From: a virus
Length of the DNA: 37,139 nucleotides
Virus record (IMG/VR): IMGVR_UViG_3300011116_000209
Location: 1-37,139 of that record
Reading direction: 5' to 3' (one strand)
Below, in pieces: positions 1,243 to 5,595 of the stretch. The position numbers were made by a program, and so were the translations under genes. The notes under the pieces were generated by a model. It was given only the letters and a program-made list of their open reading frames with translations, did no database searches and was not told the DNA's origin. Position 1 is the first letter of the stretch. Every line of letters starts with the position of its first letter.

Positions 1243-1551
1243 ATGTCCCCTACCCAGCGTTCCCTGAAATACCTCCGCGACCAAGGCTACCGTTGCTGGA
1301 TTGTGGAGAGGTGGTGTCCCTATTCCCGCAAGCGGATAGACCTGTGGAACTGCCTAGACATCCTGGCTATCGGGAACGGGGAGACCGTAGGGGTACAGAC
1401 TACCAGCCGTGGAAATGTTGCGGCGCGGGTAAAGAAAATCGAGGAAAACGAGTATTACCCAGAGTTGGTGCGGTCGGGGTGGAAAGTCCATGTCCACGGG
1501 TGGGGGAAGTTAAAAGCGGGCTGGACGCTGAAATTAGTTGAACTTAACTAA
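1243..1551 (+). CDS. PD-(D/E)XK-like (VRR-NUC-type) nuclease-like protein
   Basis: This 102-aa protein begins MSPTQRSLKYLRDQGYRCWI and continues with a basic-aromatic segment, then 'DLWNCLDILAIGNGETVGVQTTS' (residues 43-65), then GNVAARVKKI. The layout (helix, Asp-Ile-hydrophobic strand, second strand with a Gln where Glu/Lys are usual) matches small phage proteins of PD-(D/E)XK-like fold. The motif here is D...VQ rather than D...ExK, so activity is uncertain. It is the first gene of the rightward arm and is separated from the rest of the arm by the structured RNA and terminator at 1552-1914. Confidence 0.6.
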   Translation: MSPTQRSLKYLRDQGYRCWIVERWCPYSRKRIDLWNCLDILAIGNGETVGVQTTSRGNVAARVKKIEENEYYPELVRSGWKVHVHGWGKLKAGWTLKLVELN

Positions 1552-1914
1552 AACCGTGGTATCCTAGCGTTGTCGGAAGTGACGAACCGGCACGTTGGGA
1601 ATAGGAAAGAACCTCTAAGTGAGGCTTGTTTGCACGCACCTATTCCCCGTGCTGGCCTGTCAAGCCCAAGTCTCACTTAGGGGTTTTTTTGTTTCCGACA
1701 GCTACCTAGTCGTCGGCGAAAGACGGCAGGGCTAGGCGGCGATAGGGATACTGTGGGCAGCGTTGGAATATCCTAACCTGGCGGCGAAGTCAGCACCAGA
1801 ACGCGAAAAGGCTGACGAGTCCTGTGGCTCCGAAAGTGCAGGTAAAGGCGGGCGAGGCTAAGGCTAAGTCCGTCCACCAAAAGTGCAGATATATATACAT
1901 AGTAAGGGAGGATT
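1552..1914 (+). ncRNA. Structured non-coding leader/attenuator RNA with interlocked helices
   Basis: This 363-bp gap has no convincing ORF but dense pairing. Helix A pairs 1587-1594 plus 1597-1605 with 1639-1655 (17 bp, a TT bulge and one G-U). Helix B pairs CCUCUAAGUGAGGCUUG (1612-1628) with 1667-1683 and runs into seven U. The order A5'-B5'-A3'-B3' is that of a pseudoknot. An outer helix pairs TGTCGGAA (1571-1578) with TTCCGACA (1693-1700). Downstream, 1705-1709/1732-1736 encloses 1711-1714/1722-1725, 1746-1750 pairs with 1769-1773, and 1776-1780/1839-1843 closes a three-way junction with hairpins 1789-1794/1811-1816 and 1817-1830. It resembles no RNA family I know. It probably regulates the operon beginning at 1915. 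Confidence 0.6.
1612..1690 (+). terminator. Intrinsic terminator formed by helix B of the leader RNA
   Basis: A 17-bp helix (1612-1628 with 1667-1683, two G-U pairs) is followed directly by TTTTTTT (1684-1690). The loop is unusually long (38 nt) and contains the 3' arm of the competing helix A. Formation of A before B is transcribed could hinder or delay the terminator, so this looks like a conditional terminator between gene 1243-1551 and the main rightward operon. Confidence 0.75.
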
Positions 1915-2289
1915 ATGTATAGGAATAGAGAGTACGGTAGCCAGCTTAAGGACTTTTCAGGTCTGAGATGGGGAGCAATATCTCCGACAGATATAGACGC
2001 AATCCTAGAGTTCTCTAACCGACTGTTCATAATCGTAGAGGCAAAATATAAAAATGCCCAAGTTCCGTTTGGGCAAAAGCTCTGCCTAGAGCGACTCTGC
2101 GATGCCATCCAAAGCGAAACCAAGACCTGTGTGCTAATGCTTACGTCGCACGAAAGCGACGGGGATATAGATATGGGTTTGACAATTGTTAGACAATACA
2201 GGGAAAATGGAGTCTGGCACGAATCGCCAGAAATGACTTTGAGGGAAGTCATAGACATTATGAGGAGAAAATATCTTGGAACTACCTGA
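1915..2289 (+). CDS. PD-(D/E)XK nuclease-like protein
   Basis: This 124-aa protein carries 'SPTDIDAILEFSNRLFIIVEAKY' (residues 23-45), a D-x(n)-ExK nuclease signature in the expected strand context, then FGQKLCLERLCDAI as a helix. Such small phage proteins are usually annotated as nuclease-like or restriction-endonuclease-fold proteins. The ATG at 1915 follows GGGAGG, and it is the first gene after the structured leader. The next gene starts inside its 3' end at TTG 2276. Substrate is unknown; a role in recombination or host DNA processing is plausible. Confidence 0.65.
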   Translation: MYRNREYGSQLKDFSGLRWGAISPTDIDAILEFSNRLFIIVEAKYKNAQVPFGQKLCLERLCDAIQSETKTCVLMLTSHESDGDIDMGLTIVRQYRENGVWHESPEMTLREVIDIMRRKYLGTT

Positions 2290-2822: not shown

Positions 2823-3190
2823 TTCTCTCCCCGCACAACAGGAACCTAGCCCGTGAGATGGTGGATAACGCACCTGACGGGCATATCCTAGAAGTCCGAC
2901 CACCTAAACGCAGTCTTGACAGCAACAGGTACTACTGGGCGGTCTTGGGTGATATATCCGAGCAAGTAGTGCCAGGTAAAGCCTACGAGCCTAGTATCTG
3001 GCACGAGTATCTACGCGCCTTGTTTTTGCCTGAACGAATGGTGGAGTTGCCAGACGGAAGCATAAAGATGCTAGAACCTAGCACTAGCGAGTTAAATCAG
3101 GCGACGTTCTCGGAGTACACGGAGAAGGTAATAAAGTGGGCACTCGAACACGACGTAAGATTTAGTGATAACACCAGGGGTTTGAGATGA
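2819..3190 (+). CDS. ninB: NinB-family recombination protein
   Basis: This 123-aa protein fits NinB/Orf of lambdoid phages: an N-terminal strand, 'EVRPPKRSLDSNRYYWAVLG' at about residues 25-44 (the family's R-S-x-x-QN-x-x-W-x-x-L-x-D pattern), and a C-terminal helical part with 'ELNQATFSEYTEKVIKWA'. NinB family proteins bind single-stranded DNA and replace RecFOR functions in Red recombination. The start is GTG at 2819, overlapping the previous stop (GTGA), and the end overlaps the next ATG. It belongs with the annealing protein and exonuclease of this phage. Confidence 0.85.
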   Translation: MILSPHNRNLAREMVDNAPDGHILEVRPPKRSLDSNRYYWAVLGDISEQVVPGKAYEPSIWHEYLRALFLPERMVELPDGSIKMLEPSTSELNQATFSEYTEKVIKWALEHDVRFSDNTRGLR

Positions 3191-3732
3191 GGGTCTTGGT
3201 TGCTTGTGAATACTCAGGAACGGTCAGGGATGCGTTTATAAGCATGGGGCATGACGCTATGAGCTGCGACCTTTTGCCGACTGATGTTCCTGGGCCGCAT
3301 TACCAAGGTGACGTAACCGATATCCTTGGTGACGGATGGGACTTAATGGTTGCTCACCCACCTTGTACTCACCTAGCTGTATCTGGTGCTAGATGGTTTC
3401 ATTTAAAGAAAGTAGAACAGGCAGAGGCTTTGGGTTTCGTTAATCTCTTGCTAAACGCACCGATTGAACGCATAGCATTAGAAAACCCTGTGTCGATAAT
3501 CTCTAGCCGGATTAGAAAGCCAGACCAAGTAATCCAGCCTTGGCAGTTTGGACACGGAGAAACAAAGGCGACTTGTTTGTGGTTAAAGGGATTACAAAAG
3601 TTAATTCCGACAAATATTGTCAGCGGGAGAGAGAATCGGATACACAAGATGCCGCCTTCTCCTGACCGATGGAAAAAGCGTAGCACTACTTATACTGGGA
3701 TAGCCAAAGCAATGGCAGAACAATGGGGATGA
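3187..3732 (+). CDS. DNA cytosine methyltransferase-like protein without target-recognition domain
   Basis: This 181-aa protein opens with 'MRVLVACEYSGTVRDAFISM', similar to the SAM-binding motif I of C5 methyltransferases. It then shows 'AHPPCTHLA' (residues 58-66; PPC resembles the catalytic PC motif) and 'LENPVS' (resembles the ENV motif). The C-terminal 'FGHGETKATCLWL' block is typical of this short phage family. It is about half the length of a full C5 methyltransferase and lacks an evident target-recognition domain, so sequence-specific methylation is uncertain. ATGA overlaps occur at both ends of the gene. Confidence 0.6.
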   Translation: MRVLVACEYSGTVRDAFISMGHDAMSCDLLPTDVPGPHYQGDVTDILGDGWDLMVAHPPCTHLAVSGARWFHLKKVEQAEALGFVNLLLNAPIERIALENPVSIISSRIRKPDQVIQPWQFGHGETKATCLWLKGLQKLIPTNIVSGRENRIHKMPPSPDRWKKRSTTYTGIAKAMAEQWG

Positions 3733-4028
3733 CGAAAAATGAAAAAAACCATCTCTCTAAAGTTGCAGCCCTCGGATGCATGGTCTGCCGAAGAATTGGG
3801 TACTCTGATAGCCCGTCTGAAATTCATCATCTGCGGGCCGGTCAAGGATGGGGCAGGAGTTCGCACTACCTTGCAATACCACTATGCCCAGAACACCACA
3901 GAGGTAAAACTGGAGTTCACGGACTCGGAACCAAAGGCTTCCCAAAGCACTACGGATTTACAGAACAAGACCTGCTTGACGACGTAAGGAGCTTACTAGG
4001 TGAAAGCAATAGCGATAGCAACAACTGA
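3729..4028 (+). CDS. Ref-like HNH nuclease (recombination enhancement family)
   Basis: The protein (MTKNEKNHLSKVAALGCMVC...) has C-x-x-C at its N-terminus, 'EIHHLRAGQGWGRSSHYLAI' and 'PLCPEHHRG'. These are the Zn-binding and HNH elements of the phage Ref/RecA-dependent nuclease family. I place the start at ATG 3729, which overlaps the upstream TGA (ATGA) and gives the family's usual MTKxEKxHL start; ATG 3723 would add two residues. The 3' end overlaps the next gene by 29 nt. It is expected to nick or cut DNA at recombination intermediates. Confidence 0.75.
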   Translation: MTKNEKNHLSKVAALGCMVCRRIGYSDSPSEIHHLRAGQGWGRSSHYLAIPLCPEHHRGKTGVHGLGTKGFPKHYGFTEQDLLDDVRSLLGESNSDSNN

Positions 4029-4683
4029 GGGGAAATGCCTTCCAGTACTGGCCGCCTCCGTGACCTTCTACGTCCCGCAGGATGTGACGGTATTCCTAGC
4101 GGGTAGCGACATTATCTTCCCGCGCCACAGGACTGTGAACCTTCCCAACGACGCGACCAACTTTGGCGATGCCTATAACGCCGTGGTAAAGCGGGCGTTC
4201 GAGGAAGTAGACGAGGTGGTGGTCTGTAACGACGATATTGTGTTCAACCCTAGCACCTGGAAGCTGCTTGGCGAGGACGTTGCGTTTCTGCGAGACAAAA
4301 GCATCCCCCTCGGCTGGGTAGCCGCTAGGTCTGATTATGCCCGAGGATTGCAGAATATTCGGCTAGGGCAGGGGAGAATGGAATTTTTTAGATACGAGAC
4401 CGAAAATCTTATTAACATCACAGATGTTATAGCCCCGATTTGTAGTTACATACACAAGGACGCGTGGGTGGACTTCCCGCCCTTGAATTGGTATTCAGAC
4501 GATGTTAACTGCTTGGACATCCAGAAGAAGGGTTTTCAGCACGCCATCAGCAGGGCTTACGTCCACCACGTCGGTTCTCAGACTTGTGGATTTAATGCCA
4601 AAGAACTTATACAATCTGCCCAACCTTGGATTAAGGAAAACAGGCCGGAGTTATACGACTTATGGTTTCGGAAGAAAGACTAA
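4000..4683 (+). CDS. GT-A-like glycosyltransferase (family 2-like)
   Basis: A GTG start at 4000 gives 227 aa. The N-terminal strand MKAIAIATTEG is followed by 'DEVVVCNDDIVFNPSTWKLL' (residues 71-90), where NDD is a DxD-like metal/nucleotide-sugar site. Later come 'NWYSDDVNCLDIQKKGF', resembling the acceptor-side ED motif, and 'AYVHHVGSQTCG'. The fold is that of a single-domain soluble glycosyltransferase with no membrane segment. Its location among DNA-metabolism genes makes modification of phage or host DNA, or of a host target, possible. The acceptor cannot be deduced. Confidence 0.65.
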   Translation: MKAIAIATTEGKCLPVLAASVTFYVPQDVTVFLAGSDIIFPRHRTVNLPNDATNFGDAYNAVVKRAFEEVDEVVVCNDDIVFNPSTWKLLGEDVAFLRDKSIPLGWVAARSDYARGLQNIRLGQGRMEFFRYETENLINITDVIAPICSYIHKDAWVDFPPLNWYSDDVNCLDIQKKGFQHAISRAYVHHVGSQTCGFNAKELIQSAQPWIKENRPELYDLWFRKKD

Positions 4684-5066
4684 AAAACTGGGCGTTCTAT
4701 TGTGCGTGGGGTCATGTTGGCCCTGAACACCGTACCCAATGCGCTAGCGCGGAGGGGAACTACGAGTCCGAGGATGTCTTTGAGGGCGAGGAACCAAGGA
4801 TAGAACCCGATATGTTGGACGGGCAGATGGTAGAAGACGCAGTAAGGGTTTTACCTGATATAAGTCGCAGGGTTTTGAAGGCAAGGTATATACAGTACCC
4901 GTACAACCTGAGCCACAATGTAGCCCAGAGATTACGGATGAGTACAGACAGGCTTGAGGCAGAATTACACATAGCAAAGAGGAGGCTATATGACAGACTT
5001 AACAGAAATAGTCCAAGGTTCGCAGGAATGGTTACAGGCGAGACTGGGGTTTTGCACCGCGAGTAG
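4662..5066 (+). CDS. Sigma-70 region-4/Q-like HTH regulator, candidate late activator
   Basis: This 134-aa protein begins 'EERLKNWAFYCAWGH' and, from residue 55, reads as helices: 'VEDAVRVLPDISRRVLKARY' then 'LSHNVAQRLRMSTDRLEAEL' and 'AKRRLYDRLNR'. Helix-turn-helix segments after an 'LP....R.VLK..Y' helix are the pattern of phage sigma-region-4-like and Q/ArpU-type late regulators. The N-terminal 'NWAxYCxWGH' block recurs in such phage proteins. It overlaps the glycosyltransferase upstream and the exonuclease downstream (77 nt). A role in antitermination of the late leftward operon is an inference. Confidence 0.5.
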   Translation: MVSEERLKNWAFYCAWGHVGPEHRTQCASAEGNYESEDVFEGEEPRIEPDMLDGQMVEDAVRVLPDISRRVLKARYIQYPYNLSHNVAQRLRMSTDRLEAELHIAKRRLYDRLNRNSPRFAGMVTGETGVLHRE

Positions 5067-5595
5067 GGTTAGCGATGCCTTGGCGGGCAAGGATACAGAG
5101 ACCCGCAAGAACTACCTCTGGCAGCTTGTAGCAGAGAGACTCACCAAGATGCCCCAGGCGGGGTTTGCGCCCAACGCGGCCATGCTTCGCGGAACCGAGC
5201 AGGAGCCTATCGCCCGCGCCGCCTACGAAGCCCATAGCGGGGTTTTCGTAGACCAAGTAGGATTCGTCCAACACCCGACTATAAAGTGGCTAGGAGCCTC
5301 TCCTGACGGCTTGGTTGGGGATGATGGTCTGGTAGAGATTAAGAACCCGAACACGGCCACGCACCTGCAATACAGAAAGGCGGGAAAGGTTCCGACCAAG
5401 TACAAGAACCAGATGATGCTCCAACTTGCCTGTACGGGTAGGAAATGGTGCGACTTTGTGAGTTTCGACTCCCGACTGCCGGTCAGCAAGATGCTGTTCA
5501 TCGTGCGGTTCGAGCCAGAACAAAAGGAGGTAGACGAGATGTTAGACAAGATTCAGGTGTTCTTATCAGAAGTGGAGGCCGAGTGTGACGATTGA
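4990..5595 (+). CDS. YqaJ-family viral exonuclease (lambda Exo-like)
   Basis: This 201-aa protein begins EIVQGSQEWLQARLGFCTAS, the conserved 'Q(G)xxxWxxxRxGxxTAS' start of YqaJ recombinases. Catalytic motifs follow: 'LRGTEQEPIARAAYE' (residues 66-80), 'WLGASPDGLVGDDGLVEIKNP' (about 100-120; D of SPDG and E-x-K) and 'YKNQMMLQLACTGRKWCDFV'. The enzyme resects double-stranded ends 5'-3' and loads the annealing protein. All catalytic residues are visible and the length is usual. The start at 4990 lies inside the previous gene, with AAGAGGAGG just upstream. Confidence 0.9.
   Translation: MTDLTEIVQGSQEWLQARLGFCTASRVSDALAGKDTETRKNYLWQLVAERLTKMPQAGFAPNAAMLRGTEQEPIARAAYEAHSGVFVDQVGFVQHPTIKWLGASPDGLVGDDGLVEIKNPNTATHLQYRKAGKVPTKYKNQMMLQLACTGRKWCDFVSFDSRLPVSKMLFIVRFEPEQKEVDEMLDKIQVFLSEVEAECDD

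What the first reader, a model, noticed from the sequence alone, without database searches (positions are those of the whole stretch)
1701..1914. Second structured domain with a three-way junction and repeated AAAGTGCAG
Beyond the terminator, the non-coding DNA stays highly structured: 1705-1709/1732-1736 around 1711-1714/1722-1725, 1746-1750/1769-1773, and a three-way junction closed by ACCTG (1776-1780)/CAGGT (1839-1843) with hairpins at 1789-1816 and 1817-1830. AAAGTGCAG occurs at 1833-1841 and again at 1880-1888, near the start of the 1915 gene. CCTAGC at 1563-1568 can also pair with GCTAGG at 1731-1736, linking both domains. It may be an independent ncRNA or a put/nut-like antitermination site.
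Basis: partly seen in the sequence, partly recalled or inferred. Interest (0 to 1): 0.6.

Follow-up and report, generated by a model that had tools for sequence, protein, structure and literature searches.

The report
Pseudoknotted phage RNA with self-matching loop
The stretch is a real, strongly folded noncoding RNA carried by many phages and some bacterial jumping genes, and one of its loops copies the sequence at its own far end, which hints that the RNA pairs with its own DNA; what it does is not known.

Summary
Window 1702-1820 is a full-length match to Rfam RF02932 "Betaproteobacteria-1", a family whose function I could not find (79.9 bits, cut-off 49.4). In 64 nonredundant relatives five helices (P1, P2, PK1, P3, P4; interleaved pseudoknots) covary strongly. 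The RNA extends past the Rfam model through hairpins P5 and P6 to about 1891. Their differences are mostly those that keep X1 able to pair with the complement of X2 (runs of 11 nt or more in 45 of 90 loci, 14.4 in shuffles). RNA2 usually occurs once per phage, near the head of a rightward replication/recombination operon, often just after a promoter-terminator module (D1). It also occurs in Acidovorax phage AP1, as solitary genes in Paraburkholderia, and within 5 kb of the Tn7-type gene tniQ in seven genomes. Best guess: X1 pairs with the template strand at X2 (an R-loop, as in ColE1 RNA II). Put-like antitermination is a rival. Function remains undetermined.

The parts
1538..1565 (+). inferred promoter of the leader: TTGAAC (1538-1543), 16 nt, TATCCT (1560-1565); transcript start near 1571-1573
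   Evidence: read by eye; 8 of 12 consensus positions, so not listed by the scan; other phages have TTGACA/TATAAT-like boxes at the same place before D1. Inference.
1571..1690 (+). D1: structured module ending in a terminator hairpin and seven T; a 5' segment (GGGAATAGG 1597-1605) pairs into the terminator interior (CCTATTCCC 1639-1647)
   Evidence: fold z = -6.55 (1571-1700); in 38 D1 modules the terminator stem scores 9.9 vs 5.7 shuffled and the pseudoknot 7.2 vs 5.9 (max 6.4). No Rfam family matched it apart from a chance-level miRNA match.
1702..1820 (+). RF02932 core of RNA2
   Evidence: cmscan 79.9 bits, E 2.6e-13, model 1-120 of 120 (alignment)
1705..1736 (+). P1: 1705-1711/1730-1736 and 1712-1715/1724-1727 with a conserved two-base bulge
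   Evidence: helix 1: 92.4% of cells paired, 7 of 11 pairs changed on both sides
1745..1774 (+). P2 stem 1745-1750/1769-1774 with the invariant loop sequence ACTGTGGG
   Evidence: helix 2: 6 of 6 pairs compensated; loop invariance
1760..1804 (+). PK1: P2-loop GCGTT 1760-1764 with AACGC 1800-1804
   Evidence: helix 3: 4 of 4 pairs compensated, 83.5% of cells paired
1778..1799 (+). P3: CTGG 1778-1781/CCAG 1796-1799, interleaved with P4
   Evidence: helix 4: 95.3% of cells paired, 4 of 4 compensated
1789..1816 (+). P4: GTCAGC 1789-1794/GCTGAC 1811-1816
   Evidence: helix 5: 98.4% of cells paired, 3 of 6 compensated, 3 invariant
1821..1842 (+). P5 hairpin CCTG/CAGG presenting GGCTCC and X1 in its loop
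   Evidence: obs 4.47 vs 4.10 shuffled (max 4.38); weak statistically
1830..1844 (+). X1, CCGAAAGTGCAGGTA: internal copy of the self-matching sequence
1847..1874 (+). P6 hairpin GGCGGGC 1847-1853/GTCCGTC 1868-1874
   Evidence: obs 7.56 vs 5.72 shuffled (max 6.33)
1877..1891 (+). X2, CCAAAAGTGCAGATA: copy at the 3' end of the conserved element
   Evidence: in Paraburkholderia conservation falls off after X2
1915..2289 (+). first gene after RNA2 (124 aa; looks like a PD-(D/E)xK nuclease to me, no PHROG or Pfam match)

Best explanation
RNA2 (about 1702-1891) is a cis-encoded, doubly pseudoknotted noncoding RNA made as part of the leader of the rightward replication/recombination operon. SHOWN by comparison: membership of RF02932, the five covarying helices, and the co-evolving X1 and X2 copies. 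SHOWN as a bias: X1 differs from X2 mostly by changes that keep X1 able to pair with the complement of X2. INFERRED: when RNA polymerase has transcribed X2, the P5 loop displays X1, and X1 pairs for about 11-15 nt with the template DNA strand at X2 behind the polymerase, starting an RNA-DNA hybrid (R-loop). The folded core would hold that loop in place. MOST LIKELY USE, inferred: opening DNA there or priming replication, as ColE1 RNA II does; next, holding or controlling the transcription complex at its own locus.
For: X1/X2 covariation and its direction (a 15-nt run in the window, a 17-nt run in L271 with six G-to-A and one T-to-C difference). No complement of X was found near the element or conserved elsewhere in the phage stretches held, so the other DNA strand at X2 is the only partner found. 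Of 40 virus records 38 have one match, one has a second sub-threshold match and one has none. Downstream genes run in the same direction for about 6 kb and include primase/helicase, RecE-like exonuclease, RecT and DnaB-like genes. About 100 bp after X2 are A+T-rich and C-poor on the RNA strand (C about 0.11-0.15, G about 0.24), which would favour an R-loop. Precedent: the persistent RNA II hybrid that primes ColE1 (PMC5043065, passages read).
Against: No direct evidence of an R-loop or of an origin. Pooled third-position GC skew does not change at RNA2 (left + genes -0.014, right + genes -0.013). Some members lack X1 by eye (L094, L119, L275; the L303, L307-L311 and L181, L211, L222 groups), so pairing is not the core function. 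Solitary chromosomal copies and copies near tniQ are not obvious origins. G in X1 could also serve pairing with CUCC inside the P5 loop. X1 C with X2 T, which does not fit the rule, occurs in L026, L115 and L117. A C-poor leader may simply be an ordinary unstructured 5' UTR (no control run).
Confidence: 0.33

Rival explanations
1. Put-like RNA antiterminator: the folded RNA2 binds the elongating RNA polymerase and lets it read the long operon downstream, with D1 as an upstream conditional terminator.
For: Leader position after a sigma70-type promoter and a terminator module, same strand as about 6 kb of downstream genes. HK022 put RNAs lie downstream of early promoters and act without dedicated phage proteins (PMC9378689, passages). 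Close relatives swap D1 and RNA2 modules at one place, as regulatory modules do.
Against: RNA2 lies downstream of the D1 terminator, so it cannot help RNA polymerase past it in cis. No excess of terminator-like sites downstream (+ 36, - 47 in 115.8 kb). One copy, not two. Does not explain X1/X2 or solitary chromosomal copies.
Confidence: 0.22
2. Guide-like or structural RNA of mobile elements acting in trans: X1 is a recognition loop used by a protein to find DNA matching X2, in phages, Tn7-type transposons and recombinase/RepB islands.
For: tniQ (PF06527) within 5 kb of an RNA match in seven genomes (RNA places; TniQ places); TnsAB-TniB-TniQ in L303 and L311, TniA-TniB-TniQ in L304, L306, L312. 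Serine recombinase with two RepB/ParB-type genes on the same stretch in L304, L305, L306, L310. Solitary promoter-bearing copies. X1 sits in a hairpin loop.
Against: The phages carry the RNA once per genome, and no such transposase was noticed beside it. The TnsAB-linked members lack X1. X2 is not shown to be at a transposon end. The linkage was not tested statistically.
Confidence: 0.2
3. P4-type immunity leader: X1 and X2 are twin targets of a separate complementary small RNA that forces early termination of the operon (as seqA and seqC in phage P4, recalled).
For: Two like sites in a leader, a terminator nearby, allele-like swaps between close relatives.
Against: No complement to X found in cis or conserved elsewhere. 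D1 changes completely while X stays the same (L126, L129, L141, L144). A common third strand would allow A-to-G as often as G-to-A; among distinct X1 the counts were 0 and 9.
Confidence: 0.12
4. X1 and X2 are binding sites of a protein, in RNA or DNA, and their match reflects protein specificity rather than pairing.
For: Repeats of about 9-13 nt that diverge between phages but match within one.
Against: The differences are biased to the two wobble-compatible kinds, which a protein site would not predict.
Confidence: 0.1

Closest known systems
Rfam RF02932, Betaproteobacteria-1 RNA
   Same: Full-length match over the cut-off; same conserved loops (ACGGCAG, ACUGUGGG, GGCGAAG)
   Different: The Rfam model (120 positions, three helices) lacks PK1 and P3 and everything 3' of P4: P5 with X1, P6, and X2
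HK022 put RNA
   Same: RNA element in the leader of an early phage operon
   Different: put is about 70 nt, two stem-loops, two copies per phage (PMC9378689); RNA2 is about 190 nt, doubly pseudoknotted, normally single
ColE1 RNA II primer
   Same: Works-like only: a structured transcript that forms a persistent hybrid with its own template DNA (PMC5043065); that an upstream G-rich loop pairs with the template is recalled
   Different: No sequence relation; no origin, RNase H dependence or antisense RNA I shown
Phage P4 immunity leader (recalled)
   Same: Two like sites in a leader with terminators
   Different: No complementary third RNA found
IS110 bridge RNA and Tn7-type RNA-guided systems (recalled)
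   Same: A loop-displayed sequence that matches DNA; some members lie beside tniQ
   Different: No dedicated recombinase noticed next to the phage copies; guide function untested

Membership tests
RF02932 Betaproteobacteria-1 | score above the curated gathering threshold | tested here: met
   79.9 vs 49.4 bits
RF02932 Betaproteobacteria-1 | whole model aligned with its three helices | tested here: met
   positions 1-120, untruncated, two non-standard pair sides marked
RF02932 Betaproteobacteria-1 | conserved base-paired structure in relatives | tested here: met
   31 pairs, 91.0% of cells paired vs 67.6% shuffled; covariation 0.558 vs 0.151
HK022 put RNA | about 70 nt, two stem-loops | tested here: not met
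   five-helix core plus two hairpins; put description
HK022 put RNA | two copies, one per early operon | tested here: not met
   one match over the cut-off in 39 of 40 virus records, none in 1
HK022 put RNA | suppresses termination in cis without phage proteins | not testable with these tools
   needs a transcription assay
ColE1 RNA II-type primer | part of the RNA pairs with its own template strand | tested here: inconclusive
   the pattern of X1/X2 differences fits; no physical evidence
ColE1 RNA II-type primer | located at a replication origin | tested here: inconclusive
   pooled GC3 skew shows no switch
P4-type immunity leader | a complementary small RNA | tested here: not met
   none in the flanking sequence nor conserved elsewhere in the stretches held
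IS110 bridge RNA | adjacent DEDD recombinase | not tested
   none noticed among Pfam/PHROG matches, but no search was made for it

The most novel reading that the evidence does not exclude
RNA2 is a self-addressed DNA-binding RNA: a loop that co-evolves with, and base-pairs to, the DNA at its own 3' end, shared by tailed phages, Tn7-type transposons and recombinase islands. It would be either a protein-free origin-opening R-loop RNA for phage replication or a guide RNA of a Tn7-like system without Cas proteins.
Probability: 0.2. Interest if true: 0.9.

Novelty: new variant of a known kind. Interest (0 to 1): 0.68.

Why it matters
I found no function for RF02932 in the library searched. The comparison places it in phage early leaders and near transposons, gives its full extent and pseudoknotted fold, and yields one sharp, testable rule (X1 pairs with the complement of X2). 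If true, a phage RNA would act on its own DNA by base pairing, which is known for ColE1-type plasmids but which I know of for no phage leader RNA (recalled, not searched).

Tried and rejected
Hidden-gene, tRNA-like and known-ribozyme readings: no other Rfam support in the window, no tRNA or tmRNA, and covariation instead of codons. A third strand pairing both X copies: not found. P0, the pairing of the D1 start (TGTCGGAA 1571-1578) with the linker after the T-run (TTCCGACA 1693-1700): fits the window but is only marginal over 41 D1 candidates (6.36 vs 5.92 shuffled, max 6.25). Replication-origin signal by GC skew: none pooled, though a few phages (L255, L251, L249) show the expected pattern. 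Terminators downstream: no excess. An unanchored search for the X repeat gives many chance matches (7.86 vs 7.18 shuffled) and was replaced by the anchored and wobble tests. I built no covariance model of my own. The alternative RNA in place of RNA2 in L123, L124, L136, L137 (five contigs) was not worked out. DNA searches of named phages with the window, a Paraburkholderia copy, L012 and L194 gave nothing; the plasmid search gave nothing.

Rows dropped: 13 of 37 genome contigs pattern matches were set aside by eye as chance. L176 and L180 were left out of A1 as truncated (64 of 66 representatives used). L278 was dropped as a chance match. L024, L028 and L094 were dropped from the D1 test (38 of 41 used). 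In one search, 37 of 77 loci failed the anchor patterns and were not counted; several of those show the repeat by eye.

Full report
WHAT IS THERE. The window is a 37,139-base virus record. Bases 1702-1820 match the whole RF02932 model (Betaproteobacteria-1 RNA) at 79.9 bits, E 2.6e-13. Searches of the paper library for the family name or number found nothing, and a paper I recall as the likely source (doi 10.1093/nar/gkx699) is not held, so I found no function for the family.

RELATIVES. In the bacterial and archaeal genome collection it gave 37 stretches, of which I judged 24 real by eye, mostly Paraburkholderia, Caballeronia and Burkholderia. Further viral scans gave 16 stretches, 3 of them new, and 28 diverged candidates. 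The isolated phage Acidovorax phage AP1 (OM049504.1, host Paracidovorax oryzae) carries it in an unannotated gap after its primase gene, and MW202545.1 (Manatee Spring) carries it after a TTGACA/TATAAT promoter and a D1 module.

STRUCTURE. On 64 nonredundant sequences (A1) I counted 31 pairs in five helices: P1, P2, PK1 (P2 loop with the segment after P3), P3 and P4. 91.0% of cells are standard pairs (67.6% in shuffles), 24 of 31 pairs show changes on both sides, and the covariation score is 0.558 (0.151 shuffled; at most 0.155 when partners are slid). P3 and P4 interleave and PK1 links the P2 loop into the P4 loop, so the core is doubly pseudoknotted. A single-sequence fold would not have shown it (z -1.1). 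The structure was drawn from these same sequences, so the paired percentage leans towards it; the double-sided changes are the stronger argument.

3' DOMAIN AND THE REPEAT. The conserved region goes on past the Rfam model (28 loci printed). In most of them a hairpin P5 shows GGCUCC and X1 in its loop, hairpin P6 follows, then YYCACC and X2. P6 is supported (7.56 vs 5.72, max 6.33), P5 only weakly (4.47 vs 4.10, max 4.38). X1 and X2 match within a locus: 8.1 of 11 positions vs 4.0 shuffled, max 4.7 of 1000 (84 unique pairs); 6.95 of 8 vs 3.45, max 4.40 of 2000 (40 nonredundant loci). Among 26 distinct X1, substitutions at positions 1-7 in the 24 with at least half identity were G-to-A 9, A-to-G 0, other 4. 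Allowing the wobble pairs of X1 with the complement of X2, runs of 11 or more occur in 45 of 90 loci (14.4 in shuffles); the mirrored rule gives 10 (3.8). Three loci (L026, L115, L117) have C in X1 and T in X2, against the rule. No complement of X was found nearby or conserved elsewhere in the stretches held.

CONTEXT IN PHAGES. Of 40 virus records, 39 have one match over the cut-off, one of them with a further sub-threshold match; the record without (of L136) has a different RNA in the same place. Genes for about 6 kb downstream run mostly in the same direction. In the window these include an O-like replication protein, NinB, a methyltransferase, a RecA-dependent nuclease and a YqaJ exonuclease. 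In 24 phages 120 downstream ORFs include five each of primase/helicase, RecE-like and DnaB-like matches and four RecT. In many phages D1, a terminator module with a covarying pseudoknot, sits between a promoter and RNA2. Among close relatives D1 and RNA2 are swapped independently: the same RNA2 with different D1 (L126, L129, L141, L144), a diverged RNA2 with its own X in both copies (L127, L128, L130), or another RNA (L123, L124, L136, L137). So X2 belongs to the RNA2 module.

CONTEXT IN BACTERIA. In Paraburkholderia and relatives RNA2 is a unit of roughly 360 bp with its own promoter-like upstream region, up to 4 copies per genome, in intergenic places among ordinary genes; conservation falls after X2. 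It is patchy: 8 of 61 and 14 of 77 genomes of two genera. Comparing these places with TniQ matches, I count seven genomes with tniQ within 5 kb (G010, G093, G102, G116, G140, G162, G190). Their operons are TnsAB-TniB-TniQ or TniA-TniB-TniQ in the five that were read. Three loci (L304, L305, L306) lie on stretches with a serine recombinase and two RepB/ParB genes, and a fourth (L310) about 3 kb from such a set. No formal base rate was computed.

MECHANISM. The shown facts are the fold, the co-evolving repeat and its biased differences. The complement of X2 exists with certainty only as the other DNA strand, so I commit to X1 pairing with that strand during transcription, by analogy with ColE1 RNA II (PMC5043065, passages). 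Use in replication or in operon control is inferred; the skew test gave no origin signal. Put-like antitermination (PMC9378689, passages), a guide-like RNP and an immunity leader remain open, with the evidence for and against each given in the rival list.

VERDICT.

Noticed in passing
window 1571-1690: D1: a pseudoknotted terminator module with very different alleles in near-identical phages; no Rfam family matched it.
   Followed up: partly
L123/L293 and L136/L294, directly after D1: A different, apparently structured RNA replaces RNA2 in close relatives of the window phage; five contigs found.
   Followed up: no
L012:4325-4382 (+): Hammerhead_II ribozyme match, 38.1 bits (cut-off 37), in a phage contig.
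   Followed up: no
L303, L304, L306, L311, L312: Tn7-type operons (TniA or TnsAB, TniB, TniQ) within a few kb of an RF02932 RNA in Burkholderia-group genomes.
   Followed up: partly
L304, L305, L306, L310: Serine recombinase followed by two RepB/ParB-type genes on the same stretch as the RNA.
   Followed up: partly
L312:114-2678 and 2965-5082: ZorD/DpdE-like helicase-nuclease and another protein with PADLOC defence matches on the same stretch as the RNA.
   Followed up: no
window 1894-1921: TATACATA (1894-1901) and TATGTATA (1914-1921) could form a hairpin over the ribosome-binding site and start codon of the 1915 gene.
   Followed up: no
L069:2347-2778: The first gene after RNA2 in this phage reads as an RNase H; one RNase_H match among 120 downstream ORFs.
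   Followed up: no
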